Shown: positions 43,316 through 62,852 of the stretch, piece by piece
How positions within the stretch are numbered: the first letter of the stretch is position 1
Layout: every line of letters begins with the position of its first letter
NCBI GenBank assembly: GCA_015501075.1
Contig: JADNYJ010000116.1
Coordinates: forward strand, 1 to 64,000
Direction: 5' to 3'
Length of the DNA: 64,000 nucleotides
Origin: Gymnopilus junonius
Taxonomy: Eukaryota > Basidiomycota > Agaricomycetes > Agaricales > Galerinaceae
Program-made: the position numbers and the translations under genes
Notes under the pieces: generated by a model
Database searches by the model: none
The model's input: the letters and a program-made list of their open reading frames with translations, nothing else
Told to the model about the DNA's origin: nothing

Positions 43316-44125
43316 CTATGGCACCCACAGCTTCTTTACAGGACCCTCGATATCTACTTTAACGAGGGGTTCAACACACATCCATACATTTTTTTCGACG
43401 TCATTTATATCTCTTCCTGCATCGATGGTTATCCATTTGGTAGCTCCCTTGCCCGACTTCTGATCCTCGACCATTTCTTCGCCGATGCGATGGAAAGACT
43501 GGCGCACTCTCGATTGCATCTCTTCCTTTTCATATCTCTCCTCCCCATAACCACCCCTTTCCTTCGCCTTCTCTGGCGTAATATCGAAGAATAATACGAG
43601 ATCTGGTGCAGGAAGACCAACGTCGGGATTTCTGCACCACTCAAAGGGGATGAGCGGTTCACCGGAAGAGTTGACTTTCGACGCCGAAAAAGCTATTCCC
43701 GAGAACGCATACCGATCGCAAATGACAGTCGTGCCTGCCGTCAATAGTTTTTCAATCGTAGTCCTATAGTCAAAATGAGCCAAAGGCGTAAGAATGAGGA
43801 AAGAGTGCGGTAATTACGCTAGCTCCCAACGATTGGCAGAGAAGAGTAAATGGACGGCATGATCATCCAGATCGGAGGCCGACCTTAAATACGAGTCAAT
43901 CATTTTTCCAATTGGAGTCGTTCTGTCTATCCGTTAATTCAGGGATTAGCGGTCCTTGGGTTGGAAATGTAAATGGATTGCAAGTTACATACCAGGAAAC
44001 TTGGCCAGTTTGGTCTCAATACCGCTTTGCTCTAAGCGGTATACCAGTCTAGAGGTTTGAGTGGTCTTTCCAGACCGGTCAAGTCCTTCAATGACGATGA
44101 ATGGCGCTCGACCCGCCCTTGACAT
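43316..44125 (-). CDS. Thymidylate kinase (dTMP kinase)
   Basis: Phosphorylates dTMP to dTDP with ATP, essential for DNA synthesis (yeast CDC8). ATG at 44125; exon 1 carries the P-loop IEGLDRSGKTTQ, with the substrate-specific Asp-Arg following Leu. Introns separate the LID-proximal exon SYLRSASDLDDHAVHLLFSANRWE, and the main exon starts with the nucleotide-monophosphate-binding DRYAFSGIAFSA motif (about 43700). ERYEKEEMQSRVRQSFHRI forms the LID-like region. The stop is at 43316. About 230 residues, normal for eukaryotic dTMP kinases. Appears intact. Confidence 0.92.
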
Positions 44126-44963
44126 GACAGTATTCCAGAATTATTGACACTTTTTATGGTATAGTGAAGCCGGTCTAAATTATCAGACCAGAGCGAAAGG
44201 ACCAAGTTAGTTTTAGCCTCAAGCCTACGTGAGGGGAGGAAGCAAGACGCGTCTTTTGCGTCTAAAAATAGATACACAAGCAAGAAGCTAACCGGCCCGC
44301 ATACAGCAAATTGCCGATCGACTGGCCTTAGGCGAGTTCCGTCCTGTTTCCGTTGCGTTCGCCCCACCATCGCCCTTCGAAGTCAACTTGTTATGGTCCC
44401 AAATATGGAGGAATGGCAGACCAGTATTCTTTCTCTTATCATAAATTTTCAATGAAAGTTTGAAATGGTTTAACAGTCGCCAGATCAAGCAAGTGGCGCA
44501 TCTAATTACTGAAGTTGCTCCTCCGATTGGAACCCACAGTGCCCGTCGAAGTCCATGCCGCACATGAAATCTCCTATGACCCAGGCCTACGACGAGGAAC
44601 GGCACAGGTTGAAATACACATGAAAAAATCAGGCACTATAGGGTACCAAGAGCACGCGTATCCAATGCCCATCGGAGCATTGATGCACTCATGACCTGCA
44701 TAAATCCGAAAGCAGGCCGAAAACGACACTGAATTCCTCCTAACTGCCCTCCTTTTCTGACTTGGTCGTCGGAGCTATTTTTATCAGCCCCGTCTATATG
44801 AGCTCGGGGTCCAATAACGTTAGCCTTGGTCTGCATTGAAAATTCCTCGCTTCGCCTAGGACTTCTTTCGCTTCCGAAGTAGCCTTCTTCTTGCCCTCGT
44901 TCCCCAACACGCGACGAGCCACGTCCTTTTCTCGATACCTTACATCGAACACGGGCCTTCAAA
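44126..44963. promoter_or_regulatory. Divergent intergenic region, dTMP kinase / MFS permease
   Basis: No gene seen; should hold both promoters. No clear TATA box found. Confidence 0.35.
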
Positions 44964-47160
44964 ATGACCAAGGCACCTCCCTCTGAGAGTAGTCTAGAGA
45001 AAAATGTCGAGTTGAAGATGGTGGAACGCGTCGATCATCCGAAGGACGAGCACCTAGAGAGGTCCGAGAGATTGGCAGTCCGGAAATTGGACTTGACGGT
45101 TCTGCCTATCCTGACGATATTTTATCTGCTCTCCTTCCTGGTAAGTCCAATTGCAACGCTCAACCATCCTCGCTTTAGCTGATGTGGCCGTAGGATCGTG
45201 CCAACATAGGTCGGTTTACTTTGTGGGGCAATATAGAACGAATTGAGTATTGACACTCCTGGTTCTTCTTTCTTTTCAGGAAATGCTCGCGTTGCTGGTT
45301 TGCAGAAGGAGCTGGGCCTCACCGACAACCAGTACGAGATTTGCGTGACGGTCCTCTTTGTGTTCGTCGCATTTCCTCTTGTTCGAGTCGATGCTCATCG
45401 TCTATCTTTACCTCCGCAGCCCATATATTGTCGCTGAACTACCCTCAAATTTGCTGTTGAAACGAATAGGGCCGAGGGTGGTAATGCCTACGCTGCTGAC
45501 GATCTGGGGAATAATGGTGACCCTGCAAGGTGAGTCATCTAACGAACCTATTACAAATAATCCTGGTGATTCTAAAGTTGTGGTGAAGGCCTTGTGACCT
45601 CTTTTGCTGGTCTGGTTGTCGTACGAACACTCTTAGGTCTCGTCGAAGGACCGATGTTCCCGGGCATTGCGCTCTATTTGTCAACTTTCTACACGAGGAA
45701 GGAGTTGGGACTTAGGTTGAAGGAGTCTTATTAATCCATTCCACGCAATATTCAATACGTTATGTTTTACAGGATTGCACTGTTCTTCTCCGCTGCTTCT
45801 GTAAGCTGATCATTTCCCTGAATATCTGGTTTTCGTCTGAACGATAATGTCAGCTTTCTGGGGCCTTCTCTGGCTTACTTGCTGCTGCAATCGGGAAGAT
45901 GCACGGCGTCGGTGGTCGGCCTGGCTGGGCTTGGATTTTCATCCTGGTAGTCGCTCGTTTCATTCCCGCTTATGACACCGTCGCTGAGATTCAAAATGCT
46001 TAGGAAGGCTTGTTTACTGTCTTAATAGGCATCCTCGGATTTTTCGTCCTTCCATCTACTCCTCGTGATTCCAAATTCCTTACCGATGAACAGAAAGAGT
46101 AGGATTCGGCCATTACCCAATACATGGAACCTGCATACTTATTTTCGCCGTCAGATTGATCATGGAACGACTGGAGCGCGACAGGCCCTACATGAAGCCT
46201 GTTGACGTCTTCAGCTTCAAGGAGGTTTTCCGATCCTCACTTCACCTCACGTCATTATAGTCTTCGTCATATTTTTCATGATTGGAACGACACTTTATGG
46301 ACTCGCACTTTATCTTCCTTCGATTGTGTCTCAACTAGGATTCAGCCCCACAAAAACTCAACTTCTCAGCGTCGGTCCCTTTGCTGCTGGATTCTTTGGT
46401 GCGTCAGGTCCTTTTATAATTCAAAATTACCTTAAGTTTTATTAGTCTCTCTAATTGCCGCCTTCTGGTCTGACCACTATCAATCAAGAGGCATACCAGC
46501 AGCGTTACTCTCTCTGCTCGCTATTGCAGGTTTTCTGTGTATCTTCGTACGTTTTACGCGACAGTTATTCTTTTCTCTTTGCTAGCTTACTGATAACCAC
46601 TGCAATTATCGACAGGTGCAAAAGACAAGTATACCTTATATGGCGCTCTGTAATCTGATGATCCCGGGTATATACGCACCTGTACCGGTCATTACAGCGT
46701 GGATGGCTAATAATTCTGAGCCACATTATCGCAGGGCTACCAGTGTAGCCTTCGGTTTCATTGCGACCAACTCTGTCAGTACTAGTGATTCGCACCCCTT
46801 ATTCTGCTTGACGCAGTTTATTTTATTCAGGGTGGCATTCTCAGTACATGGAGATATCCTACAAAAGAAGGACCAAGATTCAGAAATACGACGATCATGA
46901 ATCTTACTTTGTCAGTATTTTCAGCGTCGTTTTGAAGTCAGGCAGACTGATTGTTTCCTTTGTTTAGCACCATCATTGTGGTCGTATTTTCTCTTGGAAA
47001 CATGGCATATTTATCATGGAGAAATAAAGCAAAAAGCCTACCTGGCAGACGTGAAGAGATATTAAGGAAATATGAGGAAGAGCAGGACGGAGATGAGGAT
47101 GGCTTGAAAGCTTGGATGGATCTGGGCGACCAGCATCCTGATTTTAAATATACTTTATAG
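44964..47160 (+). CDS. MFS permease of the anion:cation symporter (Dal5/Tna1) family
   Basis: Plasma-membrane transporter related to yeast allantoate/nicotinate permeases; substrate unknown. ATG at 44964; N-terminal cytosolic segment, TM1 (LTVLPILTIFYLLSFL), DRANIGNARVAGLQKELGL, the TM2-4 signature VPYIVAELPSNLLLKRIGPR, TLLGLVEGPMFPGIALYLSTFY, and a central loop with DEQKE. The second half carries GTTLYGLALYLPSIVSQLGFSPTKTQLLSVGPF, WMANNSEPHYRRATSVAFGF and a final TM before TAG at 47160. About a dozen 45-60 bp introns. At about 46233-46245 (CCTCACTTCACCTCAC) the frame breaks before HVIIVFVIFFMIG: either a single-base loss or a small duplication. Otherwise complete. Confidence 0.85.
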
Positions 47161-48307
47161 CCCACGTCTGCGTATGTTAATGATTTACGAAATTTATTAA
47201 ATACTTGTGAAGAAACTAATCCTGAAGTACCTTTATATGTCTAGTTTCTCGGGCCCCGACTTATGAACGTTTCCGGACTTGCCGACACACGTTTTGCGCT
47301 GGACCGTTTTAGTCGACTAGTTATTGCAACTGCTTGGGTGAATAGCTGCTATCCTTGTAACCACGCTTATGAGGTGGTCAATTAATCACTTGCATGCATA
47401 CATAGGTACTAGTACATAGGTAGGTAAGTAACCGGTGAGGTCCTAATAAAGGAACGACCAGCCCATGGGTTTATTTGAAGACTTGTGATCACAGCCCACG
47501 GGGATGCCCGACTCGAATTTCTGGTACCGGTCTCATGTTCTAAAAGAATGGTTTGGATAATTATATCTCTTGATCAAGACTCTTTTCGAGTTCTGATATC
47601 CATTCGCCACCCCAAAGTCTATCTCAGGCAGCCACCCTAGCAAGAAACATTCACCGCTAATGGCACACCAAATATTAAAAATCACTTTTGAATTCTGAAC
47701 TTCAACCTTTTCCCGAACAAATTAATTTTATTAAATTGGTCTGCAGGTATTCGCAAATTTTCGTAGCATTTAGATGGATATTGATGAGCAAAAGACGTAG
47801 AATATATTGGCACATATGTTGCAAAAAGAATTGAGAAAAATTGAGTTGAATCAGTTGAAATAAATGCGTGTCAAAAGTGTGCCATTGGCGGGTGGTGTGC
47901 CATTAGCCGGGGGATGACTGTATTAGAGAGAATTTGCTGCGACCGTAGAACTCCTTACTTTCCTTAGTTGCGTGGCGCGAACTACGGTAGAGTAAAAGCA
48001 CCGTGAAACTTGCAATACCTACCATTCAACTGTTAACCGTACTTATGACAGATCCCGTTTTCTCTAAGAAATTGCCGCTCGTATCTCCGTTCAAGATCTC
48101 GCCTCAACGCACGCCTGGGCCGTACGGTTCCTTGTCTTGACGAACCTGGTGAGAATCGCAGAAATTCCATTACGTTTTATTTTCTGATGAGATTTCCATT
48201 AGGAGTCTGCAGAGATCCGTACCAGCAATGAAAAAGAGGATAAAAGCGAGCTTTTCAGAGGCTGAGTTCTACAGCGCAATATCCTCCTCACGAAAGACTC
48301 TTCCAAG
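47161..48307. promoter_or_regulatory. Intergenic; promoter of secreted Cys-rich gene 1
   Basis: No gene seen. A TATA-like GATAAAAG at about 48239-48246 sits 60-70 bp before the next ATG. Confidence 0.4.
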
Positions 48308-48769
48308 ATGAAGTTCTCGATCTTATCTTTTGTTACTACTTTGGCTTTCGTCTCGCAGGCACTTGCCACGCCTGCTCCCCAGGGATCTACCACCGTTTAT
48401 CACTGTACGTGTTTATCTTTTAAACTTGTCGTCGTATCAAGTTCTGACTGCCACTGGTATCACAGGCAATGGACCATCGGTATGTCTACAATTTCAAATA
48501 TTCATAGATGTCGATTGACTTCTTGAACTCGTCACCTTCATCTAGGGAGAGACTTGTAAGCGACACGTTTCTCTTGTGGTTTCTAATGTTGATGAACACA
48601 TGTCACTTAATTTCTAGGCCCTACTGGATATCGCTGCTGCGGTCCCCTCCTAGTTGGAGTCGGCGGAACGTAAGTCGAACATTTAGTTGGGGGATTTATT
48701 TTTTTGCTGAATACGAATTATTTTGGTAGCTGTTACCTTGGAACCACCGGCATTTGCCCTGACTTGTAG
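48308..48769 (+). CDS. Small secreted cysteine-rich protein 1 (C-C-CC-C-C)
   Basis: Five exons: 48308-48404, 48466-48479 (14 nt), 48546-48555 (10 nt), 48618-48669, 48730-48769; all GT-AG and in frame, 70 residues. Residues 1-20 are a signal peptide (MKFSILSFVTTLAFVSQALA), followed by a short TPAPQ segment and a mature core with exactly six cysteines in the order C-x7-C-x5-CC-x10-C-x7-C. The core motif is CCGPLLVGVGGTC. Introns split the codons of Cys1 and Cys2 (phase 1). The pattern fits an inhibitor-cystine-knot (knottin) framework, but disulphide pairing is inferred, not known. First of a seven-member cluster. Role unknown; could be effector, antimicrobial, signal or structural. Confidence 0.88.
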
Positions 48770-49471
48770 TTCACTTTCGGTTAATTAGCCTTCATTGGTC
48801 CCTAGTCGATCACGCATCCGTCAGGACTGGCCCCACCAAGTCAATAATCAGAGCCCGCTGTTTGATGACAGTTATCTTGGAAAAGTGTGCCTCTCCGAAA
48901 TAAGTTTATATCTGAGTCGTGCTGGCCTGATCAGACAGCGCTCTGCTCGTCCCAAATGTGTTCATGAAAAAACCGGAACACGCCTCGGGCCTATCGATGC
49001 AGCGCGTGCTCATTGCTGCTGCGGTCTCTCCAAGAGGAATGCGAGTATAAATTGGTCGGTGGCCCAATCAATCCCGCCCGCTGTAATTGAGGCGGTTCAG
49101 AACGCCTCAAAGTGGACAGATCGACTGCGCATCTGAGACCGTCCTTATGTACCTGACATCCAAGGTCAATTTTGTACAGAAATTGGGCGCCCTCATTCAG
49201 ATTTGTAAGTGTCACGAGTGTTTTATTCGCCAAACCTGAGACGAATAAGAACCTGAGCGCGCTCCCCTGCATTTTTCCGTGGATCGTTCGGAGGCTGCGT
49301 GGGTCCATACATAGATGTAACCGTTACTAGAATTCAACAGGACAATTAGCTATCCGTATGACAGTGACAGAACTTAGCTTGAAGGAATGATCATGAAGCC
49401 CAACATATATATGAAGGACGAGTGAAGGAATTAACAGGTTAGAAATCTCCTCTGTTCATCACTTAAACGTC
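48770..49471. other. Intergenic between Cys-rich genes 1 and 2
   Basis: No gene. TATA-like CATATATATG at about 49403-49412 precedes gene 2. Confidence 0.4.
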
Positions 49472-49927
49472 ATGAAGTTCCAAATCCTTTCTTTCGTCGT
49501 ATCCCTTGCACTGTTTTCTCAAGTGTTTGCAACACCCACCCCACAAACAACTGATCCTCTTGCCTGTATGTTCTTGAAGTTCATCGTTGGGGTTGACGTT
49601 GACGCAGATCGTAGGTGGCGGCCCTGATGTAAGTTACGCATGAAGCTTTTGCTAGGATTGTTTTTTTATGGCCGTTATCCGTTTGATGGCGATAGAATAT
49701 ACCATGTAAGCTGCAGTTTTGTGTCGTCAAGAATATTCTCTCCGATTGAGTGACTATGGTATTGCAGGTCCTTCTGGATATCGATGCTGCCTTGGACCTT
49801 TTAGTCCATTCGAACAACGTTTGGGAGAGTACGTCATTCAGTATAATTTATCTGGTTTGAAGGCGGTCTGATGATAAGAACGTTTAAAAGGTGCCAGCCC
49901 GGGCTGCGTGGCGTGTGCCCTACATAG
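49472..49927 (+). CDS. Small secreted cysteine-rich protein 2 (longer loop)
   Basis: Exons 49472-49565, 49615-49628 (14 nt), 49696-49705 (10 nt), 49768-49828 and 49891-49927; GT-AG throughout, 71 residues. Signal peptide MKFQILSFVVSLALFSQVFA, then TPTPQ, then six cysteines spaced C-x7-C-x5-CC-x13-C-x7-C. It keeps CPSGYRCC but lacks the GVGGTC motif: the loop before Cys5 is three residues longer and charged (FEQRLGE). Same intron phases as gene 1 (1, 0, 1, 2). Same orientation as gene 1 and 700 bp downstream, so a local tandem duplication followed by divergence is likely. Confidence 0.85.
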
Positions 49928-50496
49928 GCATACGACTGAATCAATCTCACCTTTAGCGTCTTGGGGGTCTTGGTACACTTGCATAATTATCGCTACAAGA
50001 GAGCACCTGCTAGTACTTGAGAGCCGAAGATACCAATGACCAGTTGTTGAACTTGAAAATTTCTTTGATCGTCTCGTCCAAGTTAGGCTCAGATATCCCA
50101 GCATTGTTGCTTGTACCAATCGAATTATTGTAGTTAATAAACCCAGGAATGAACTAATGCAGGATATAGAGCCCAAGGCAGAAGAAAGCAGCAACCCGTT
50201 AAGAGAGATGGTTGAAACTTTCTAAAAATAGCTCTGCCTGACCAAAGGTTCGATTGACATATGTTGGAAATTCATAGAGAGCTCTCTATGGCCATGCGAA
50301 AATCTAGAATTGACAGTAAAAGAGGTTGAAGTGGTGACGTGGTTTGGACGTGGAGGGGCAGAGGAATTATTTTAAGTTTGAAAGAAAGCCACCGTTCTAA
50401 AGATAACAACAGCAAATAGAGCGTTGTCGTCATTTCGGGAAGCGTGTCTGGCGGCTTAGAACGCTCTTGAACCTGAACCACGACTTGCGGGCCACC
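49928..50496. promoter_or_regulatory. Intergenic; promoter of the anoctamin gene
   Basis: No gene seen. The following start has a strong Kozak context (GCCACCATGC). Confidence 0.35.
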
Positions 50497-53176
50497 ATGC
50501 CAGAAACCCGTCCTCCCGATGTCGACATAGTTATTACCTTCAGAGCGACGAAGCCAACATCGCTATCGAAGCATCAGACACGGGAGGATGCAAGAAAGGC
50601 GGCACAGCAGTACAAAACGCTCATCGAGACACTCACTTACGCGGGTCTGAAAGCCGTCGGGAGGAGAGGAGAGTCTCTCGGGCATCTTCTGGTGTTCGTG
50701 ACCTGTCCGCCTAAGCTAGTAGAGGAGCTGGTTAGACGTGAACGGTGAGCAAAAAGCCGATTTTTTTCTGGCAGTATTGTGATATTTTTCTTGCTCCAGG
50801 CATTCAGACTTCATCTCAGGTTACCTGTGGCACCAGCAGCCAATGTAATTGCTCTATCGCCTGCAGAGCGCATCCGTTTAGTCTACACCTACATTACGTC
50901 AACCCCGTCTGACGGTGGCTTGGGTATCTCCCCCGAGGCTCCTGAATGGGACCTTGTCGAATCTATCTTCACCTTACACGATCGCGAATTCAACGAAGTG
51001 TGGGTTAGAGCTTGGAAGCCACGTAATATTGCTTCCGTTCAGCTAGAACGCATCAAGGACCAATTCGGCGATGCTCTGGCCTTCTACTTTGCTTTCCTCG
51101 CCTCCTACACAAAATTCCTTGCCTTTCCAGCATTCTAGGTCTCATTGGACATTTCTTATTACCTCCATATTCACCTGTATATTCTGTCTTGGTTTCGGTC
51201 TGGTCCATTGTGTTCGTGGAATGGTGGCGCGTTCATGAACGAATTTTGTCGCTACGTTTTGGTACTCGAGGGTCCTTTAAGGTCGAGAAGCACAGGGCAC
51301 AGTGGAAGAAAGGCTTGTCTTGGTGGCAGAGAGAACTACGTGTTCTCGCAAGCGTTCCAATTATCCTTCTCTTTGCGGGTATCTTGTCGACCATCCTGAC
51401 TGGCATCTTTATCTTTGAAGCATTCGTTACGCAACTGTATCAAGGCCCTGGAAAGCATCTAATCGTCAGTCCTTTCCCTTTTTTTGTTTATTTTTGTATT
51501 TCATACTATTCATACGCGCAGACTTTTTCTCCGACCTTAATATTTGTCGTACTTGTACCCAGAGTGCTTGCGCTTTACCAAGCCATCGCAGTCAGACTTA
51601 CAAACTGGGAGAACCATTCGCACAAATCGACGCATACCGCCTCCCTTACTCTCAAAACATTTGCCCTAAGTGCGGTTGTCGCATACTTGGGTCTTGCTCT
51701 TTCCGCCTTTGTTTATGTACCTTTTGGAGAGGGCGTAATGCGCTGGGTCCAAGCTTGGCTTTTCAATGGCGTGCCCACGACAACTCATACCGGCATCTCA
51801 GCGGCGATTAGGGATATGCTCAACGGGACCATTTCTGCTGCCAAAGATTCATCCATAGTCGTTGATTCCGTGACAGGCGCGTCTCCGAAACTTGGACACG
51901 TGGCCATGTGGGATATCGATCCAAGTAACGCACGGCTGAAGTTAAACCCAGGAAGGCTGAGGGAACAAATGTTCGCGTATACGGTTACCGCACAAGTCGT
52001 CAACACCTTCACTGAGGTTGCACTGCCGTTTTTGCTTCGCAGAATATCTGCTTTCCGAAAAGATAGAGCTGCTCTCAACAAACCAAAACCCATTGTTGCA
52101 CCTTCTTCTGGTGCCTCCGCCACGGGATCTACCACTGGTACTAGCTCCGCTGTTGATGGGCAGACCGCGTCTTCTCCGACGTTAAAGAAACGTGTGGTCT
52201 TTGAAGATGAGAAGGAGCGCGGAGGTCTTGCCGAACGCGCGTTTCTGGACAAGGTCAGAGAGGAAGCAGCGCTACCTGACTATGATTTATTTGTAGATTA
52301 TAATGAAATGGTGGTTCAATTTGGATATGTTGCTTTGTGGTCCGCGATGTGGCCTTTAGCTGGAAGTGAGTATCACCATGATTTTTTCTTCATTATTTGT
52401 TTGGCCTATTTTCTTCCTGATTTCTGATTCTTGTCTCGTTTCTAGCAATGGCATTTCTCAATAATCTGTTGGAATTGCGTTCGGACGCGTTCAAGATCAC
52501 TATCAATAATCGGCGGCCAATACCCTGTCGGACGGACACGATTGGACCGTGGCTGGATACGCTCACATTTCTCACCTGGCTAGGTGCCTTGACAAACTCA
52601 GCGCTTGTCTATCTGTTTTCACCTCAATTGCTCCCTTCCTCTTCCAAATCCAACTTTGCAGGAAGTACACTCCTTAAGAATGTCTCTGAACTACTCAATG
52701 AGAGCACCGCCGCTATTCAAGAACATTTCGTCTCAGCGTCTGGCGGCCGTTCTGAAACTCCTTCATCCCCTGCCACCTCAGCTTGGGGCGTGGATGGCTC
52801 ATCGTCTCCATCAGCGTTATGGGCTACACGCGAGCTTCTCCTCAAAGCAGCTTTGGTCGCCCTGATCGCATCACACGGGTTTATCCTCGTGCGTCTCTTC
52901 ATCCGGCATATCGTTGAGAAGGTCTTCTGGCGGGGCAGTGGCGAGGTTGCAGAGAGGGAGAGAGAAGATCGGGAGGTCAAGGTGCAGTTCTTGAAGGGCG
53001 CTGGACCAGGTGGATCTAGTGGACTCAGACTGGTCGGCGAAGTGAGGATTGAGAGGAATATTGATGACCCAGATGGGGCGATTAGTGGTGAAAGCGAGGC
53101 GAAGGGGGATGAGATGGCGTTCTGGGACCATGATGAAGGCATTGATGAGATTCAGAGATTATCGAAGGAGGCGTGA
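50497..53176 (+). CDS. TMEM16 / anoctamin-family membrane protein (Ist2-like)
   Basis: Calcium-dependent lipid scramblase / ion-channel family; the yeast member Ist2 tethers ER to plasma membrane. ATG at 50497; N-terminal cytosolic domain (PDVDIVITFRATKP, RLVYTYITSTP), then the transmembrane region: ALAFYFAFLASYTKFLAFPAF, LIGHFLLPPYSPVYSVLV with EWWRVHER, TM pairs ending NWENHSH, the re-entrant/TM core, and the anoctamin signature YNEMVVQFGYVALWSAMWPLA followed by LNNLLELRSDAFKI. Calcium ligands are plausible but not mapped. Stop at 53176. At about 51134-51137 the frame is broken: GCATTCTAGG where GCATTCCTAGG would continue into LGLIGHF, i.e. one C missing from a CC run. Confidence 0.88.
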
Positions 53177-53681
53177 AGCTGCTTTGAGGTAAGTTGTATT
53201 TGATTCCATCTTGAATCTTGGGTCGACCGATTGATTTAAACATCTTTGCCCTCTGCAGATGCAGAGTAGTGAAGACTTGAAACACACTTGATGATTATTG
53301 ATGTTAGACGTTTTTTATTATGCATTTGTACGCACATACGAGAAGCATAGCGAGTTGTTCTTTCTCCCTCTTGTTTTTCTCTGTAATTCACGACCGTAGT
53401 AGAGTAGTATATCTGATCCCTATCATACATGTTTCCAGCAATCGAGTTGTACTGTCTTAGTGATAATAAATAACTCTCTATGCTTATGTATGTTTCTTTA
53501 GCTTTTGCACTGCCGCCAGTGGCCACTGGTCCTCTTGGAGGCCATTTGTGTTGCACAGCACAATCCGGTTTCCGCGGAGCCCCTATCCGGGATGATTAGA
53601 TAAGAGCTGTTATCGTACAAAAACGGTACAGGGGTTTTGACCCGTACCATCACTTGCTCAAACCTCGCCTGCAACCTAACT
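53177..53681. other. Intergenic
   Basis: No gene seen. Confidence 0.4.
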
Positions 53682-54469
53682 ATGGCTTCATACCATGTCG
53701 ACGAAAGGTGAAAAGATTAAATATATCGTGTTTGTTCCTCTTACTGGACGCTTGTATTCTGATAGCTGCATCTTCTGCTTGATCGTACAAGGTAAGCGCG
53801 AGCCCTTAATGTTCCGGTGAATGACTTTTCTGACAAGGAACTAATGACAGGCAAGATTCCGAGCTTCAAAGTCTTTGAAACAGAGAAAAGGTGGGAATTT
53901 ATTTGTACAGCTCTCTGTGCTGGATCTAAAATAAATCCCTAGCCTGGCGTTTCTTGACATTAATCCTGTATCCGAGGGTCACACTCTGGTCATCTCAAAG
54001 TGTCGGTTTGGGCTAATTTTTCTCTTTTGAAATGCAGTGCGCTTGAACTACCGTCCCTTGTAGATCACGGAGAGAAGATTTTAGATCTTCCAGATGAATA
54101 TCTAGCTGATATCGGCCCCATCTTGAAGAAAGTGGCCAAAGCTATTGGCGCTGAACAATTCAACGTCATCCAGGTGAGGAGTTTGGTGTATACCCTTTCC
54201 CTCAGTGATCCTGAATGAAAATTTGCTATAGAATAATGGGAAGATGGCTATGCAGGTAAGTATTCTGGCTTCCAGAGTGCTTGATTGTGATTTAAACCCT
54301 ACATAATCAGCACGTCGACCATGTTCATTTCCACATTGTTCCCAAGCCTAGCCCGACTGAAGGACTGGTTATCAATGAGGAAGTGAATTGGCCTGTCAAG
54401 AAGGTCACAAAAGAGGAGTTGGCAAAGACGGCAGAGAGGCTAATCAGCGCCCTGAACGAAGCTCACTAA
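53682..54469 (+). CDS. HIT-family (histidine triad) nucleotide hydrolase, HINT-like
   Basis: Small nucleotide-binding hydrolase (adenosine phosphoramidase or related). ATG at 53682 (MASYHVDE), then exons CIFCLIVQ with the zinc-type CxxC found in many HINT proteins, GKIPSFKVFETEK, LAFLDINPVSEGHTLVI, and KYHGEKILDLPDEYLADIGP. One intron uses the donor after TCAAAGT (54002) and acceptor CTTGTAG (54063), which restores the family's SKYHGEK. NVIQ, NNGKMAMQ and the histidine triad HVDHVHFHIVPK (about 54311-54346) follow; the middle-His nucleophile is present. TAA at 54467-54469. Complete. Confidence 0.9.
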
Positions 54470-54758
54470 ATATTGTGCAGGTTGCCTCCAATCCAATAAA
54501 CTCTTCATTTTTGCTACGATTCATTCTTCCGGTTTGTATTTCGAGTCTATAATTTTCAAATGAGATAATTTCGTACAGGTTGACTCATTCAAAGATTGGA
54601 AACCATCGCTATCACGACATATTCACAATACACTAGTAAGCAGGATATCAAGACACTTCGGAACGTAAAGGCTTTACGTGCTATGCTTATTACTCAGGGA
54701 AAATATCTGTCCTTCAATTTCCACCTGCATGTTCGGGCGCTGAAATACGTACTGTGCT

Positions 54759-55193
54759 TCAGAGAGGACAAATGCCGACGGCTCCTGGAAAGCAACTGTG
54801 GATCGTCAGTAACACGAGAAAAACGAAGAAAATACAGCACATACGTGCCACCGACGCCTTCAACAATCGGTCCACAGCAACGATATCCTCCAGGGCCTTT
54901 TGATAATGTCATTGGCACTTCAAGTTATCTTGATCAATATTGAAAGATGGACTTACAGGACAAATTCTACAACGTGGGGTTGGACATTCTTCAATAACAA
55001 TTAAAAATATAGTCAAATTATACAGACGTATGGTCCACCGCCTGAGAAATAAGTTTGAGACATAGCTTTACCCACAAGATTAGAGTATGCACATACAATG
55101 CAAAACACAAGTTGCTTCTTGAGTGGAGGCAGGTCCAATGACTTGGGACACGAACCCAACAGAAGTAAAGAGAATAGCAAAAGAGAGCTTCAT
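54759..55193 (-). CDS. Small secreted cysteine-rich protein 3
   Basis: ATG at 55193, TGA ending at 54759; five exons with the same layout as gene 1 (14-nt exon 2, 10-nt exon 3). Signal peptide MKLSFAILFTSVGFVSQVIG, then a core spaced C-x7-C-x5-CC-x10-C-x7-C with CPGGYRCC and GPIVEGVGGTC. An additional cysteine lies four residues before Cys1, giving seven in total, so one may be free or pair between molecules. TATA-like sequence (TATAAAG on the minus strand) lies near 55267. Opposite orientation to genes 1 and 2. Confidence 0.85.
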
Positions 55194-55727
55194 AATTGGT
55201 AAAATTGAGGCGAGGGACTTTGCAGTAGAACTGTGTCTGCAGGAACAGCCACCGAGACTGCAGACTTTATACACAGGGCCTTGGTCCTGTTCTAAAAATA
55301 GGCGTGCTCCTTCTTTAAATCTCTAGAGTCTCCGTCGACGACTCTATCCTTGCTGGTGGGAATGGATATTAATTTCATATCTTAGGACAAAATATGTGTG
55401 CAGTGCCAAGTGAATAAATTGTATTGTTATGAAGGAGTACTCTTCCGCAAGCAATATTTTATGGACACTAGTGGACCGTAACGGTGGGCGCTTCAGCTAA
55501 CACAATTGAAATTTGAGTATGTCTGAACATTAAAAGTCTTGGCGACATTCCATTCAAATAATCAGAATGTACTACCAGCTATTAGTTAAATGTATCTCCG
55601 TTATGTAGAAGTAAATACTACGACTCATGCCCGAAACTTGGTGTATAGACTATGTAAATGTATATACCTCCATTTGCGCTGCGACTCCACCAATCTCGGC
55701 TCTCGTTTTGGCGGGTCTTAAGGGTTT
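55194..55727. other. Intergenic between Cys-rich genes 3 and 4
   Basis: AT-rich; promoter of gene 3 at its left side. No gene seen. Confidence 0.4.
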
Positions 55728-56168
55728 TTACAGAGGGCAGATGCCGGTCTCCCCTTCGTAGCAACTAACGAGCATGTCAGGTGAGCTATTTTCCAGTTAC
55801 CACATTGGTAAAAATTGCACATACGTTCCTCCAAACGTGACGGAAAGAGGTCCACAGCAACGCCAGCCTTTAGGACCTGGAAAATCAAATGGTCAGCCGA
55901 ATTAATCCTGAGGCTTTGCAAGTCAATATTACAATTCTGTTCCTAATCACAAGGGATTCATCTCGGTCAATTTTTACGTCAAGGGACCAGCGCTCATATA
56001 CGTACGAGTTCACCGCCACCTAGAAACCAGATTAAGCTGGAAGCCAGTCAAGGAGGAGAAATAGTACTCACAATGGAAGACTGTGCCTGATTCCTGAGGC
56101 ATTGGAGTAGCGAAAACTTGCAGAGCAAAAGCAAAGGAGGCAATAAGCGTGAAGACAGAAAACTTCAT
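55728..56168 (-). CDS. Small secreted cysteine-rich protein 4 (4-nt microexon)
   Basis: ATG at 56168, TAA ending at 55728. Signal peptide MKFSVFTLIASFAFALQVFA, then TPMPQ and six cysteines spaced C-x5-C-x5-CC-x10-C-x7-C (CPKGWRCC, GGTC). The third exon is only AATT (55933-55936), flanked by AG and GTAATATTG; it is needed to rebuild the Cys2 codon (T|GT) and keep frame. Intron phases 1, 0, 1, 2 as in its paralogues. TATA-like TTTATATACTC lies at about 56240. Confidence 0.83.
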
Positions 56169-56948
56169 TTTGGATTTGTGATTTGATTAGAATTGATGTG
56201 TTTGTGAGGATGAAGCAACTTGGCTGTACTCTGCACCTTTATATACTCTGGCATTATTCTGTGAGGCATTTTCTTTCAGGCACTCATGACCTTAGCCTGG
56301 GCCAACTCGGGCAAGTGCCGGTAAACAGCTGGTATAGATCGATGGTGGATCTCGGTCCAACGGAAAATTTTGTGGGTAAGCCACGAGATGTATCTGAAAG
56401 CGGCGAACTCTCCAGACTGGTAGGTTCAAGGCAGAATACGAACCATCTCTGGCTCTGTTCTAGTTCCTTTTTGTAAGGTCGAGATGAACCCTCCCGAGTA
56501 TTGCAAATCGTGCTAACTTGTAAATAACGTATGCGTCTGACAATTTTCTTCCTGATCCCGCTGACATCCTGACAAAGCGGAAGAATTCTACGGAACAAAG
56601 GCGCCTTGACGTTCTAGAGAATGGTGACGACATCGGCTACGCGCGGTGTCAGAATACATCCGAATTTGAATATCATTTCAAAGCACTTGGGAGTGGGTGC
56701 GAGCAGCGTGTAAAAGTATCGTAAGAATCTTTGTTACATCCGTGCCGAATTGCGTGTATCCCTCAGCCGCCAGTTGAAATGAAAGATAGAAATCAAGCGA
56801 TATAATAATACGATAGACAAAGGATCAATGTTCATATGCTTCAAAAATTCAGATCAGATAAATGGAACCAGAAATAATATGTAAGTTCACACAGCTAAAC
56901 AAATGCCGCCTAATCTGATGAAAGGAACCTATCTCATTAGGTCTGAAT
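56169..56948. other. Intergenic between Cys-rich genes 4 and 5
   Basis: No gene seen. Confidence 0.4.
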
Positions 56949-57391
56949 TTAAAGGGGGCAAGCACCTCCAATGGGATGGCATCTTGGAAGTCATTCACTC
57001 TCAAAAATCCATCGTCAACGTCGGAGGGACACTTACATGCCACCAAGGGTCGCCGAAATTGGCCCACAGCATTCAAATCCGACTGGGCCTTTAAGTAGGA
57101 CAAGAGTCAGAATGCAACTCTGGGAGCACATAGAAATTATGACGCACATAGTTGAGGATTCTAATCAAGGGAACCAGACTCAGTGCAAGACAAGATTAAG
57201 AAGGGTGAATGCTTTACTACATACCAAAATACCATCGCCTGGAAGATAAGAGCATTTATCAAAAATTGCTTTCAATTTAAATTTGAGCAAATCTCACAAT
57301 GAATAATTCCGGAGGAACCCTGAGGAGCTGGCGTAGCCAAAGTAGCAACCGAAACCGCAATGGTAATAACAAGAGAGATCCAGGACTTCAT
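56949..57391 (-). CDS. Small secreted cysteine-rich protein 5
   Basis: ATG at 57391, TAA ending at 56949. Signal peptide MKSWISLVITIAVSVATLA, TPAPQ, then six cysteines spaced C-x8-C-x5-CC-x10-C-x6-C (CPVGFECC, GPISATLGGIC). Exon 2 is 14 nt, exon 3 is 13 nt (AATCCTCAACTAT). The last intron was chosen with the acceptor TTCCAAG near 56983, which gives the fifth and sixth cysteines and ends CPL; a more distal acceptor would lose both. Same family and intron phases as its neighbours. Confidence 0.8.
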
Positions 57392-57919
57392 AGTTTGTTT
57401 AGTTCCGCGACAACGCAATGGTATGTAAAGTAAGCGTATTGGAGACAGATGCCCGTCACCGTTTGGGGCTTTATACGACGCAGGCGGGATACCGAGCGCG
57501 ATTTTTAATTGAGTACTTAGATCGGTACCATCGTCTCCCCAACGTTTACCTGTCAGGACAGGTGATCAGGTATTTGAATGTCAACTGCTGACGTCGTGGA
57601 AATGATTCGGTAGCTTTCTCGCCTCAATAGCACGTTTATCATGCAAAGGAAGGTGTCGAATTCGCCTTTCAAACGACCTAGTTTCGCTGTTTTATGTAGC
57701 CCAGATGTGCAGCAAATATAACAGAGTCTTTTCAGCGGACCTGGCATGCATTCACCTGGCATGACTAGACGCAAGGATTTTCGTTGACAGTTTGAAGATC
57801 ATTAACACCTGACTATCGCCACTACGCAATTTGGATCAGCGCCCGTACCAATATCAGAATGACGTACATCTCGATTTCAATCCGTCTGTCAGGAGAATAG
57901 ACCTGGATTGCTGTAGGGT
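57392..57919. other. Intergenic between Cys-rich gene 5 and the broken copy
   Basis: No gene seen. TATA-like CTTTATAC at about 57469 on the gene 5 side. Confidence 0.35.
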
Positions 57920-58340
57920 TGGGAGGGAATGTGGCTCCTTAATCCACGGGCCGATCATAAAAGGTCGGGTTAGGTGGGATATATGTGTATTCAAGGGGCG
58001 GCTTCTGAGTCTGGGTTGATCAAGAATAGACACTCACGTTTTGCCTATGCCCGCGATGATGGGACCACAGCATTAGACCCCAGTCGGGCCTGGGTATTTC
58101 ACTTTCATTAGAAGTCTTCTTCGTGCCTATTTCAAAGAGAACGTGAACTTTGGACTCCGTTTCAGAATGGAAATATTTCATTACCGTCAGGCGCGAACTA
58201 GAAACAAAGCACTTACCATCAGCAAATTGCCTGGGACTCGCTTCAGCCATCTTATTACGCTGCTAAATGATCAGAACACTCGCAATGAGTGACGCTGGTG
58301 GAGCTTTGAGAAGCTGGCGAGGCCATGACCATGTCAAATT
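57920..58340 (-). pseudogene. Broken member of the secreted Cys-rich family
   Basis: Minus strand. About 58284-58337 matches the pro-segment through the Cys1 half codon (ASPASQSSTSVTH then T|), but its donor is GCGAGT instead of GTGAGT and the signal-peptide part is gone. About 58037-58090 matches the CC exon (CPTGV then stop, then CCGPIIAGIGKT), with TAA exactly where the residue before CC should be. A GTGAGT donor after the Thr half codon is still present. Clearly decayed; no product expected. Confidence 0.7.
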
Positions 58341-59067
58341 TGGGTCGCACTTACCATTGTTCACGGAGGTTCTAGTCGGGAAATGGGGATAAAAGTCGGA
58401 AATGCCATGGTAAAGAATTTACACCAGTAGGATATCTTCCTGACGTAGGATGACAGATCAATACGTGTGAATACCAGCAATCCCAGATTCGGTTTCGTCC
58501 ATTTTAATTGAAGTACGTTATGGGCTTTAACTGGCAAAGATCAAATGGTACAGACAATTGGACACCTGATTCAATTTCAAAGTACTGCGGCCCGAAGGAG
58601 CGTTTCAAGTCATTGGAATCATCAGGATGGTCAGCAGTTCGACAGCGCGGAAATGTCTAGGTGGAAGATATTGTCAGTTGGCGAAGGGCGTTCTAACAGA
58701 AAGGCACACGTACCAGGTCAGCTCTCGGATTCCCGAAGACGAGGCTAGGAAGACCCACCTCGGGCCCGCAAGTCAAGGGCGAAATGTGGAAATCGGAGCA
58801 TGTCCAGAACGGAAAGTCTTTTAAGTTCCTGCAGCCTGAAGAATGAGCCGGCATCGACAATCAAAGCGACGGAGTAAACAACTAGGGTGAAGACGATGTA
58901 TTGAAGCGAAATAAAAAGGACACGGAAGAGCATGAGGTCTCGCAGCGAACGCGGAAGCACATCAAGGTGACGTGTTAATAAAGAGAAGGAATTGGGGTAA
59001 AAGATACACGCAATGAGAACAGCCCTTTCAAAATAATATGCATCTATTAATGTGGGTTCGCTTGGAC
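58341..59067. other. Intergenic; possible kinesin 3' region
   Basis: A minus-strand open frame (58745-59071) has hydrophobic stretches but overlaps the kinesin stop codon and lacks support. Confidence 0.35.
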
Positions 59068-61530
59068 TCAAGACACCCGAGTCTGCTTCTTCGCAGTTCC
59101 AATTGTCGTATTGTTCACCTTGATAGACGTTAGCACCAACTGCCTTGGTTAAACGAGGTCAATACTTACCTTGGTGGCGAAGCGCAGGGAGGTCAATGAT
59201 TCTTGAAGGTGTGCAGCCAGAGGCGACAGGTTAAGGACCATCAACGTCTTGGAATTTCCGCTGAGAGAATTTTGCAATAGATATGTGAGCTAGAAGGAAC
59301 AGTCAGCCACCCGTCTTTCAACAATGCAACAGAGAAAAAGTACCTTTGAATTACGATATGGAATATGTTTGTCACCTCCCTTTTCTCCCTTTTCGCCAAG
59401 AGCAGCAATAACATCGCCAAGAGCACTCAAGCTCTTATTAATACTCTGCGTCTCCTTCACTCTCTCCTTGTCCGCTCCATTCGCAAAGCTCACATTCAAC
59501 CTTTCACTTCCTGCAAGGTCGACGAGGTTTAAGCTTCCTTCACACTTCTCGCCCGTCCCAGGACAGTCATCAATGCCCACATTCACGCCACTGATCCTGA
59601 GGGTGAATACAGAGTGTGAGCGGGATGAACGTTCATTCATTAGTGTCGCCGCCATGCTCCGACGCGATTGGGCAATGGCGAGCAAGGAGCGGACCTGAGA
59701 CGGAGAGGAAAGTTGGACGACTTCGACGTCAGTGACGCGGGTGGACCCTGTCTTGGGGTCATGCTTGATTTCATGTTTCTTCTTATCGAATTCGCCTTTT
59801 CCCAGAAGGTCATTGACGGTCTCATTGTACTGCAACTGAGGTTAGCGAAAGCCATGTATTGATAGCGTTGAGTCAAGACCTACAATCTCAAGGAATTGCC
59901 CTTCCATCTTATACTCCCATCCTCGAGTTTTCATGTCTTCTGCAACGCGGAACATTTGCTCAACTGCACGAGGTATCATTCCTGAGCTTGACTCCGACTA
60001 GGAACATGATCAGCTCCATTGAACAAAGCAACGTGAGGAAAAGGTACTCACAGCACCACCCTCCATCGTAAATGACTTCCCAGAGCCGGTTTGACCATAG
60101 GCAAAAATGCAGACGTTGTACCCGTCGACACAGCTTTGCGCCAATTGAGAGATTTCTTCAAAGACCTCAGCCTGGGTAGAATCTGGCTCGAAGACCTTCA
60201 AAAGAAAGGGTCAGCAGCATTGACCTGGGATAAATGTAAGCATTTACCCTATCAAAGGCAAAATTATAGATTTCTTTCCGCTCCTGACCCGTTGCGCTAG
60301 ACGAAGAAGAGGAGACGACAATCTCTTTGTGATCACGCTGATCAGGGTAAGACAGACTCGCTTGTAGTTCTTCTTTGGCTTTGTCGAAATCAATGCTGCC
60401 TCCGCTAGCACTGCTCGTTGAAGAGCCAGGAGATGATAATGAGCCAGCGTAGGTGGTAAGGTCCGAGGGTAGAACGGGTCGAACGCGGCAGAAAACACGA
60501 ATGTTGCCTTTTAGTTCTTGAACCATGTTGTGGAGTTTTCGACGGACGAGTTCACTCTCCATGGCTTCCTTCTTCATATCGTCAACCTGCTTTTGGGCGG
60601 TTTCTAACTTGAGGGTCAGCTCCGAAACTGTCCGGGCGTAAACGTCGATTTGAGACTGCAAAGCTGTCGACTGTGCCTCAGAGCGTTGTTCTGTGTCGTG
60701 ATTGTAAGATGGGCGGTGGATTGGTGCGTGATGGTGTTCTTCAGCGACGACACAGTTTCTCTCTCCCTCTCGAGGTCAGCTCTACAAATCCGTAAATCCT
60801 CGTTGACTTCCCGAAGTTCTCGATCTCGTTTCTTGACGTCCATTTCCAGATCCATAACCTCCATGCTGTGCTTCTTCTTGAGGTTCTCGATCTCGTCGGA
60901 AGCATGGACCAGCTCGCGGCGTTGATTGAGCTCCTGGGATTTCGCTGTGGCAAGTTCGCGAGAGAGGGCAAGATGGTTGGCTTGTAGTTCGGCAACTTTG
61001 CTACGTTCAGCCTCCATATCGGCTGCTAAACGAGCGGCGTCAGCAGCGCGGGCTTCTTCGATAGATGTAAGTTGGGTTTGGAGCTCCTGGAAACGTTTGT
61101 CGTCTGAAGGGCGGCCACCTGTTGACCTCACGGGACCAGAACCCGAAACGACTCTGCCAGCAGTAGTCCTAGATGGCGCTGTAGGTCTCGATAAGGGCTT
61201 TGAGCTGACAGGAGGTGCGCTTGTCCCTCTTGTGGATCTCGTCAATGCTGGAGCCTTTGGTTTGGTCAATGGCTTTGGTAAGGCCACTCCTGTTGCACCG
61301 CGAGATGTATTCAAGTTCGTAGCTGTCCTGGAAGGTTGAAGAGGTCTATTTGGTCTAGTAGCACCTATAGCTGGCAATTTTCGCGGCTGATCCACAGCTT
61401 CTTCGTCCTCCTCAATGATAGCCTTTCGTTTGAGACTGTTGTTGGTCGCCCGTACAGGTAAAGATGGGTCAGCGTCCGCCATGAGGTTCCTATCTGGAGA
61501 TGCGCTCCTCAACCGTGGTAGCCTGGACAT
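59068..61530 (-). CDS. Kinesin-14 (Kar3/KlpA/HSET type, C-terminal motor)
   Basis: Minus-end-directed spindle motor that cross-links and slides microtubules. ATG at 61530; a basic, Pro/Ser-rich microtubule-binding tail (to about residue 165), a long coiled coil ([19 protein letters not shown] ... [15 protein letters not shown]), the neck [14 protein letters not shown] and the motor: P-loop [16 protein letters not shown], switch [12 protein letters not shown], switch [35 protein letters not shown] and VNNT near the end. The motor at the C terminus defines kinesin-14. TGA ends at 59068. At about 60680 the frame breaks: CTGAGGCACAG where CTGGAGGCACAG would continue [10 protein letters not shown]; one G missing from a GG run. 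In an essential motor this suggests an assembly error. Confidence 0.92.
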
Positions 61531-62034
61531 AGTGAGCTCGTCGTTGATACGTCGTGGTCGTTGATGTTGAACCTTCGTTGACGAACCCAACAATGGCGAC
61601 GCGCTGATCACGTGACGGCGTCTCTGGAACGTGGCCAGTTACAATATTACATAAGTGATACATTTTTCGACTCACTCTGTCGCTCGTCCTCCATCACATC
61701 TTTGGTCTTGACATTTGAAAGTTTGAAGCTTTACATCTTGGAACTTGAAAATTATCAGCTGCAGATTAAAAACCATTCGAAACTACCACAACAGGTTAAA
61801 AGGAATTATCTTGTATTCGTTCAGCCTTCAGTATCCTTCTCAAACTTTCCATGCTTGAAGTTGTTCGCCTAATCATTCCTACCGAACCCGTGGGCGTTTA
61901 CGCCACTTACTCCGCCTTCATCTCAAACCGAAGGCGCTGCTCATCGTGAATGTGACTTACGTTCTTGGTCCGGTCATTGCACTATTTCTTCAGCGTCGCT
62001 TCACTCATTGATATCCGAGACAGTCCACGCGTAT
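61531..62034. other. Intergenic upstream of kinesin-14
   Basis: No gene seen. Confidence 0.4.
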
Positions 62035-62125
62035 TCTTTGGCGCAATCCGGATTTGAACCCTTAAGTTTCTTGGCAAGAAACCAGGATAACTTCCAGAAC
62101 TGGCTGTTTACCCACCAGGTGCGCG
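62035..62125 (-). other. tRNA-like sequence (possible decayed tRNA-Gly)
   Basis: On the minus strand GTTTC-TTGCCAA-GAAAC forms a perfect anticodon arm with anticodon GCC (Gly), followed by a box-B-like GGGTTCAAATCC. Ends GCGCA and TGCGC could pair as part of an acceptor stem. However the segment between acceptor and anticodon stems is about 16 nt too long and the T stem pairs poorly. Best read as a decayed tRNA or a tRNA-derived repeat. Confidence 0.35.
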
Positions 62126-62407
62126 CTTCGCGGAAGTGTCCATTACAATAGCTGACAAGTGACTATGATTTGATTCTTCATCGTAGTCCACGTTACACCC
62201 ACGTCATTTGTCGAAGCTTCCTATCAACGAAAGGACTAGCCTTGGCTCGGAAATTCCTCTGTTTTTGTGCTGGGAAGGATTCTCTGGTCCATTCGCACAG
62301 CGGATGAATGAAAGCCGGTAGATGCTTGGCAATTATGACCCTTGAATAACGGAATCTAGCTGGAGGTTTAAATACCAGAGCTCCAAGTTATCGCAAGGCA
62401 GCACAAA
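62126..62407. promoter_or_regulatory. Promoter of secreted Cys-rich gene 7
   Basis: TATA-like TTTAAATACC at about 62367-62376, 32-40 bp before the start codon. Confidence 0.35.
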
Positions 62408-62852
62408 ATGGCCAAGTTCTACATCTTATCTGCCATTTTGCTTCTCGTAGCCCATGGCCTTGCCGTCCCCACTCCTGAGGACGACATTGTATATCATTGT
62501 GAGTCACGTTGCGGAGTTGATTAGAATGGCAATTAATTGTATTCCTTTAATTGAAGGTGCAAACGGCGTTGTGAGTCAATTTACTTGAACAATATCATCA
62601 TAGACATTTCCCCGTGCTGATTTTGATGTCCTAAATTTAGGATACGTGTAAGCACTTTCTCTGGCTGACATGCGTTCTGATATTTAATTCCTTTCATCAG
62701 GTCCTAGCTCGGAGTGGACATGCTGCGGACCCATTCTTCAGGGTGTCGGCGGAACGTGAGCAGCACTAACCCTCCGATTTCAATTGTTGAATCTGAATGT
62801 TGCTGCGAATAGATGCATGAAGCTCAAACCTGGCGAGGTCTGTGCGCTCTGA
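62408..62852 (+). CDS. Small secreted cysteine-rich protein 7
   Basis: ATG at 62408, TGA at 62850-62852; five exons with a 14-nt exon 2 (GTGCAAACGGCGTT) and a 7-nt exon 3 (GATACGT). Signal peptide MAKFYILSAILLLVAHGLA, then VPTPEDD (an acidic pro-like stretch replacing TPAPQ) and six cysteines spaced C-x6-C-x6-CC-x10-C-x8-C, with CCGPILQGVGGTC. Intron phases match the other five. It lies beyond the kinesin gene, 4.5 kb from the nearest relative. Confidence 0.87.

What the first reader, a model, noticed from the sequence alone, without database searches (positions are those of the whole stretch)
48308..62852. Cluster of knottin-like secreted six-cysteine proteins
Seen: six intact genes and one broken one, each with a signal peptide, a short TPxPQ-like segment and a core C-x5..8-C-x5..6-CC-x10..13-C-x6..8-C, mostly with CCGPxxxGVGGTC. 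Established: C-C-CC-C-C is the cysteine order of inhibitor-cystine-knot peptides in animals, plants and fungi. Inference: this is a locally expanded, fast-evolving secreted family in a mushroom, possibly for interaction, defence or development. I do not recognise it as a named family.
Basis: partly seen in the sequence, partly recalled or inferred. Interest (0 to 1): 0.85.

Follow-up and report, generated by a model that had tools for sequence, protein, structure and literature searches.

The report
Mushroom cluster of six-cysteine secreted peptides
A mushroom carries a cluster of six small secreted proteins, each braced by six cysteines and each pieced together from five exons, two of them so tiny that gene finders often miss them; they belong to an unnamed family of gilled mushrooms whose fold and job still have to be measured.

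Summary
The window is contig C20 of a 58-Mb assembly; KN1 equals a Gymnopilus junonius protein. I spliced six intact genes, KN1-KN6; a seventh copy has a stop in both haplotypes. All six have five exons, intron phases 1-0-1-2 and two micro-exons of 14 and 7-13 nt. Homologues sit in 26 named Agaricales species and Conidiobolus coronatus; 48 of 72 sequences keep the full core. No Pfam family scored below E 0.004. The cluster is not young: KN2, KN3, KN5 and KN6 group with other genera. 'Knottin' is unproven: two AlphaFold models put strands at Cys I, III/IV and V, like the hairpin of granulin half-modules, not at II, V and VI as in a solved fungal knottin. Against granulin: half-modules end in CC, which this family lacks; no fold search was significant; the sequence link is at chance level. 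Pairing was not seen. The function, a secreted binding scaffold in biotic interactions, is inferred. KN3-KN5 were not among the public proteins found; KN2 is mis-modelled there.

The parts
48308..48769 (+). KN1, 70 aa, exons 48308-48404, 48466-48479, 48546-48555, 48618-48669, 48730-48769
   Evidence: spliced; identical to public protein P0001 (CPB84DRAFT_1850979, Gymnopilus junonius)
49472..49927 (+). KN2, 71 aa, exons 49472-49565, 49615-49628, 49696-49705, 49768-49828, 49891-49927; loop 3 of 13
   Evidence: spliced; the public model P0021 (CPB84DRAFT_1790121, partial) departs from it at exon 4
54759..55193 (-). KN3, 69 aa, exons 55193-55097, 55041-55028, 54966-54957, 54896-54845, 54795-54759; a seventh cysteine before the core
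   Evidence: spliced; core 92% identical to Galerina P0003; not among the rows
55728..56168 (-). KN4, 69 aa, exons 56168-56072, 56019-56006, 55942-55933, 55876-55825, 55764-55728
   Evidence: spliced; not among the rows
56949..57391 (-). KN5, 68 aa, exons 57391-57298, 57238-57225, 57160-57148, 57088-57037, 56982-56949
   Evidence: last exon set; not among the rows
58037..58324 (-). broken copy: exon 4 remnant 58090-58037 with an internal stop; remnant like the end of exon 1 at about 58324-58284 (by eye)
   Evidence: same stop in haplotig C586
62408..62852 (+). KN6, 68 aa, exons 62408-62498, 62557-62570, 62641-62647, 62701-62755, 62813-62852; separate type with loops 6-6-10-8
   Evidence: spliced; identical to public protein P0008 (CPB84DRAFT_1850984); clade 100/99

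Best explanation
An old, unnamed Agaricales family of secreted six-cysteine miniproteins. Shown by sequence: a signal-peptide-like leader (by eye), a TPxPQ-like stretch in some members, then a core of about 40 residues whose usual frame is H-C ... CPxG[YW]RCCGP ... GGTC ... GxCPL. Predicted: three short strands at Cys I, Cys III/IV and Cys V, so that the main hairpin joins Cys III/IV to Cys V as in granulin half-modules; the disulphides may be I-III, II-V, IV-VI or I-IV, II-V, III-VI. Inferred: the frame is a protease-resistant scaffold that shows loop 1 (coded by the two micro-exons) and loop 3 as variable binding faces; the peptides are released outside the hypha and act by binding a protein or surface of another organism (competitor, prey, grazer or host) rather than by breaking membranes, since the cores are near neutral. 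Separate paralogues (KN6 type against KN1-KN5) would serve different partners.
For: Six genes with one exon plan. Homologues in 27 named species, 26 of them Agaricales. Of 72 sequences (68 proteins and KN2-KN5) 48 match the full core; loop 2 is 5 in 45 of 48 and loop 4 is 7 in 43 of 48, while loop 1 runs 5-16 (3 in P0013, where an extra cysteine upsets the pattern) and loop 3 7-16. Two or more members on contigs of one and the same length in 12 species. Model strands 31-33, 45-48, 57-61 for P0001 (mean pLDDT 79.0) and 25-27, 38-45, 49-54 for P0039 (71.5), that is Cys I, III/IV, V. Two zebrafish half-granulin peptides have one main hairpin, residues 13-23, with a Cys13-Cys23 contact (PMC7463432 section 3.2), which I read as Cys III and V. 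Net charge of 49 cores: mean -0.43, range -3 to +5; the six here 0 to -2. Variable copy number, one broken copy and an outlier in Conidiobolus fit an interaction gene.
Confidence: 0.4

Rival explanations
1. True knottins: inhibitor-cystine-knot peptides with pairing I-IV, II-V, III-VI, convergent with rust effector MLP124266/AvrP4 and Avr9, working as stable inhibitors or effectors.
For: Cysteine order C-C-CC-C-C, the usual order of ICK conotoxins (PMC11035057). Fungal knottins are known or proposed (PMC6889267, PMC9632046, passages).
Against: Those rows are not significant (E 4.0 and 8.7). Strands in both models lie at Cys I, III/IV, V; in MLP124266 they lie at Cys II, V and VI. The loop between Cys IV and V is 7-16 here against 2 in MLP124266, which also lacks the CC pair.
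Confidence: 0.3
2. Endogenous signals or development factors of the mushroom, perceived by the fungus itself.
For: KN6 type is kept between Gymnopilus, Galerina, Pholiota and Crucibulum (clade 100/99); near-neutral charge.
Against: Copy number differs between the species found; a broken copy; an outlier outside the Agaricales. No receptor or expression evidence.
Confidence: 0.2
3. Cationic antimicrobial peptides that break membranes.
For: Small, disulphide-rich and secreted; defensin and tachystatin among weak matches.
Against: 49 cores have mean net charge -0.43 and the six here 0 to -2.
Confidence: 0.1

Closest known systems
Granulin half-modules (paragranulin, truncated granulins; PMC7463432)
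   Same: Six cysteines; CPxGYxCC stretch as in human granulin A (printed); main hairpin from the CC pair to the next cysteine.
   Different: Granulin A ends its half in a second CC pair; here Cys V and VI are apart, mostly by 7 residues. No significant sequence or fold match; fungal; pairing unknown.
Mini-granulin conotoxins TxVIIB and H-Vc7.2 (PMC11035057)
   Same: Framework VI/VII, C-C-CC-C-C, with a fold that is not the classic ICK.
   Different: Loops of 2-4 residues and a C-terminal hairpin in TxVIIB; longer loops and another predicted hairpin here.
Fungal knottins MLP124266/AvrP4 and Avr9 (PMC6889267, PMC9632046)
   Same: Small secreted fungal proteins with three disulphides and, for MLP124266, a multigene family.
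   Different: Strand places, CC pair and IV-V loop differ for MLP124266; neither is among the PDB rows.
FGB1 beta-glucan lectin of Piriformospora indica (PMC5095285)
   Same: Small secreted cysteine-rich protein of a basidiomycete.
   Different: 104-residue precursor and four disulphides by that paper (passages); its letters were not compared.

Membership tests
Inhibitor cystine knot (knottin) | C-C-CC-C-C order | tested here: met
   six of six genes; 48 of 72 sequences
Inhibitor cystine knot (knottin) | pairing I-IV, II-V, III-VI | not testable with these tools
   no coordinates are returned; AlphaFold got this pairing wrong for TxVIIB (PMC11035057)
Inhibitor cystine knot (knottin) | sheet strands at Cys II, V and VI (as in MLP124266) | tested here: inconclusive
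   two models of moderate confidence place strands at Cys I, III/IV, V: leans against
Granulin half-module | main hairpin from Cys III to Cys V | tested here: inconclusive
   predicted in both models: leans for; no significant fold match
Granulin half-module | second CC pair at Cys V-VI, as in the granulin A fragment | tested here: not met
   Cys V and VI are apart in all 48 cores, by 7 residues in 43
Mini-granulin fold | hairpin with two connected parallel disulphides | not testable with these tools
   no coordinates
Granulin domain (Pfam) | profile match and twelve cysteines | tested here: not met
   no Granulin match in 42 members or 9 cores, with HMMER's filters on; six cysteines
Granulin by descent | profile similarity beyond cysteine spacing | tested here: inconclusive
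   E 0.018 with A7, 3.4 with A10; shuffled controls 0.1 and 1.2 to other proteins; 1 of 200 and 0 of 200 local shuffles reach the real score against granulin A, a target chosen afterwards
WAP | eight-cysteine four-disulphide core | tested here: not met
   six cysteines; 1 of 42 members at E 0.026 and 1 of 9 cores at 0.031, under the cut-off

The most novel reading that the evidence does not exclude
A natural fungal counterpart of the granulin half-module: a III-V hairpin on a knottin-type cysteine order, used by mushrooms as a secreted binding scaffold, carried on a shared micro-exon gene plan that hides it from annotation, and passed to (or shared with) the distant fungus Conidiobolus.
Probability: 0.22. 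Interest if true: 0.68.

Novelty: new variant of a known kind. Interest (0 to 1): 0.5.

Why it matters
Small secreted cysteine-rich proteins are a poorly understood part of fungal secretomes. This family is spread through the Agaricales, matches no Pfam entry in my scans, and is poorly annotated because two of its five exons have 7-14 bases. It is a clean test case for the question which fold the C-C-CC-C-C order gives, since more than one is known for it.

Tried and rejected
Rejected: a 142-base last intron for KN5, replaced by a 54-base one. Rejected as proof: the granulin sequence match, after controls. Rejected: real frameshifts in the KN1 and KN2 alleles of haplotig C586, because 42 of 46 indels over the aligned stretch are not multiples of three, one in an anoctamin stretch with 0 substitutions in 800 bases and one in a kinesin stretch with 9 in 546. 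Rejected: a shared upstream motif; no 7- to 9-mer of at least three letters is in five or more of six upstream regions. I lowered the novel case from 0.30 to 0.22 and the main confidence from 0.45 to 0.40 for this.

Led nowhere: viral contigs and genome contigs with P0050 (10 and 85 pattern matches, no relative); tRNA scan of the window and Rfam scan of 40000-64000 (none). Papers: the string GYRCCGP (0 papers); granulin with mushroom and fungal (unrelated by its abstract); knottin with mushroom (41 papers, 15 listed, none on this family by title); further listings, most of them partly shown. I therefore claim only that I did not find the family in print.

Not done: expression, synteny in other species, coordinates of the models.

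Full report
What is there. The window is bases 1-64000 of contig C20 (131748 bases) in a 58.0-Mb, 898-contig assembly. KN1 is identical to CPB84DRAFT_1850979 of Gymnopilus junonius, a protein listed on a contig of 131748 bases, so the source is that mushroom. I spliced six intact genes by hand and by script. Each has five exons: leader; a 14-base exon; a 7-, 10- or 13-base exon; the exon of the CC pair; and the last exon. The intron phases are 1-0-1-2 in all six, with introns of 49-70 bases once the last intron of KN5 is set to 54. A seventh copy keeps an exon 4 with an internal stop in both haplotypes. Four of six have TATAWA 66-84 bases before the ATG; 5.5% of 5000 random windows hold it.

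Only one cluster was found. Five protein queries of the own genome hit only this stretch and contig C586; the tool calls such counts lower bounds. C586 (17862 bases) is 98.1-98.3% identical over two pieces of window 43753-61894, so I take it as the other haplotype; it ends before KN6, and one search shows no second KN6.

Alleles. KN3 differs by 2 silent base changes, KN4 by 4 silent and 3 replacing (two residues), KN5 by 1 silent and 3 replacing. KN1 and KN2 are frame-broken in C586, but 42 of 46 indels over the aligned stretch are not multiples of three and two of them hit anoctamin and kinesin stretches, so errors of the haplotig are the simpler reading. KN1-KN5 exons carry 21 differences in 1050 aligned bases, their introns 28 in 1170, six stretches of the anoctamin and kinesin genes 9 in 3539, all 9 in one of the six. 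This hints at more allelic variety in the KN genes than in their neighbours, but exon and intron rates are alike, so it does not show selection for change.

The family. Three profile searches gave 27, 65 and 46 rows. The named sources are 27 species: 26 Agaricales (order by general knowledge) and Conidiobolus coronatus. Of 72 sequences in hand, 48 match the full six-cysteine pattern and 24 do not. Eleven of the 24 break exactly at exon borders of the window genes (my reading): P0012, P0020 and P0022 lack both micro-exons in frame (24 bases); P0014, P0024, P0032, P0059, P0064, P0066, P0067 and P0068 stop or run on after GG[TML], the place of intron 4; and P0024, P0066, P0067 and P0068 read GP for CP, the place of intron 3. 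P0071, outside the 72, does both. The other 13 fail for other or unclear reasons, P0029 because of one extra cysteine. So the exon plan looks shared, and it is what hides the family. For G. junonius itself the protein collection gave KN1, KN6 and a wrong KN2 (P0021); KN3-KN5 did not appear.

Age. In a tree of 51 rows and 70 columns, with 23 of 48 inner branches open, the KN6 type forms a clade of five rows (100/99); KN2 joins Flammula and Psilocybe (96/92); KN3 joins Galerina_144433 (94/59, core 92% and leader 54% identical); KN5 joins Galerina_254598 (83/82). KN1 and KN4 are unplaced. So at least some duplicates predate the genus. Members share a contig length in 12 species: G. junonius, G. 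dilepis, Galerina, Agrocybe, two Pholiota, Hypholoma, Flammula, Crepidotus, Phlegmacium, Laccaria and Collybiopsis luxurians (equal length taken as same contig). Conidiobolus groups with two JGI proteins of unknown host (94/89), which have like leaders; that speaks mildly against contamination, but transfer is not shown.

Fold. Pfam: of 6, 42 and 9 sequences none matched a family below E 0.004, and Granulin, CBM1 and hydrophobin are not among the families listed (best Nodulin_late 0.0042 in 1 of 42). AlphaFold models of P0001 (15 rows, pLDDT 79.0, pTM 0.48) and P0039 (42 rows, pLDDT 71.5, pTM 0.45) agree on strands at Cys I, III/IV and V. The solved rust knottin MLP124266 has strands at Cys II, V and VI (passages of PMC6889267). 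Two zebrafish half-granulin peptides have one main hairpin, residues 13-23, bridging Cys13 and Cys23 (sections 3.2 and 4 and passages of PMC7463432); I read these as Cys III and V, from the granulin-4 chain, where the first four cysteines are 1, 7, 13 and 14. The prediction thus leans to a granulin-like hairpin.

Against that. Granulin A has a second CC pair (residues 26-27) and this family does not. TxVIIB, which shares the order C-C-CC-C-C and is called a mini-granulin, has its hairpin at the C terminus (PMC11035057 section on NMR). Foldseek's best rows are not significant and the first is a cystine-knot peptide; VIA-align found nothing. By sequence, core profile A7 found granulin A first (E 0.018) and granulin-4 second (4.3) and nothing else, yet profile A10 put beta-defensin first (0.24) and granulin A at 3.4, the full-length profiles put sodium-channel chains first, and shuffled controls reached 0.1 and 1.2 with unrelated chains. 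In a local test 1 of 200 within-loop and 0 of 200 across-loop shuffles reached the real score against the granulin A fragment, but that target was picked after seeing it. I call the granulin link a lead. PMC11035057 (abstract, passages, NMR section and part of the discussion) shows that this cysteine order can give a mini-granulin fold with ICK pairing and that AlphaFold got that pairing wrong, so pairing must be measured.

Function. Nothing here tests function. Cores are near neutral, which speaks against a membrane-breaking peptide. The fixed frame with variable loops 1 and 3, the variable copy number, the broken copy and the lone outlier fit a secreted binding scaffold used towards other organisms; the well-kept KN6 type could instead serve the mushroom itself.

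Surroundings. Between KN2 and KN3 lie an anoctamin gene (Pfam) and a small gene that looks HIT-like by eye (not tested); between the broken copy and KN6 lies a kinesin; a thymidylate kinase lies upstream. None points to a shared pathway.

Noticed in passing
P0017 (Conidiobolus coronatus CONCODRAFT_12161), P0050, P0051: A family member in a fungus far from the Agaricales groups with two JGI proteins of unknown host (94/89) and shares their leader style: possible transfer between distant fungi.
   Followed up: partly
window 43753-61894 against contig C586: Alternative haplotype at 98.1-98.3% identity with many frame-breaking indels, two of them in anoctamin and kinesin stretches: likely assembly errors.
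   Followed up: yes
window 54759-55193 and P0003, P0020, P0029: Some members carry an odd extra cysteine, which could allow dimers.
   Followed up: no
P0019, P0036 (Hebeloma cylindrosporum): Core followed by a C-terminal extension with two more cysteines.
   Followed up: no
public model P0021 against window 49472-49927: The public gene model of KN2 leaves the frame at exon 4; KN3-KN5 were not among the proteins found.
   Followed up: yes
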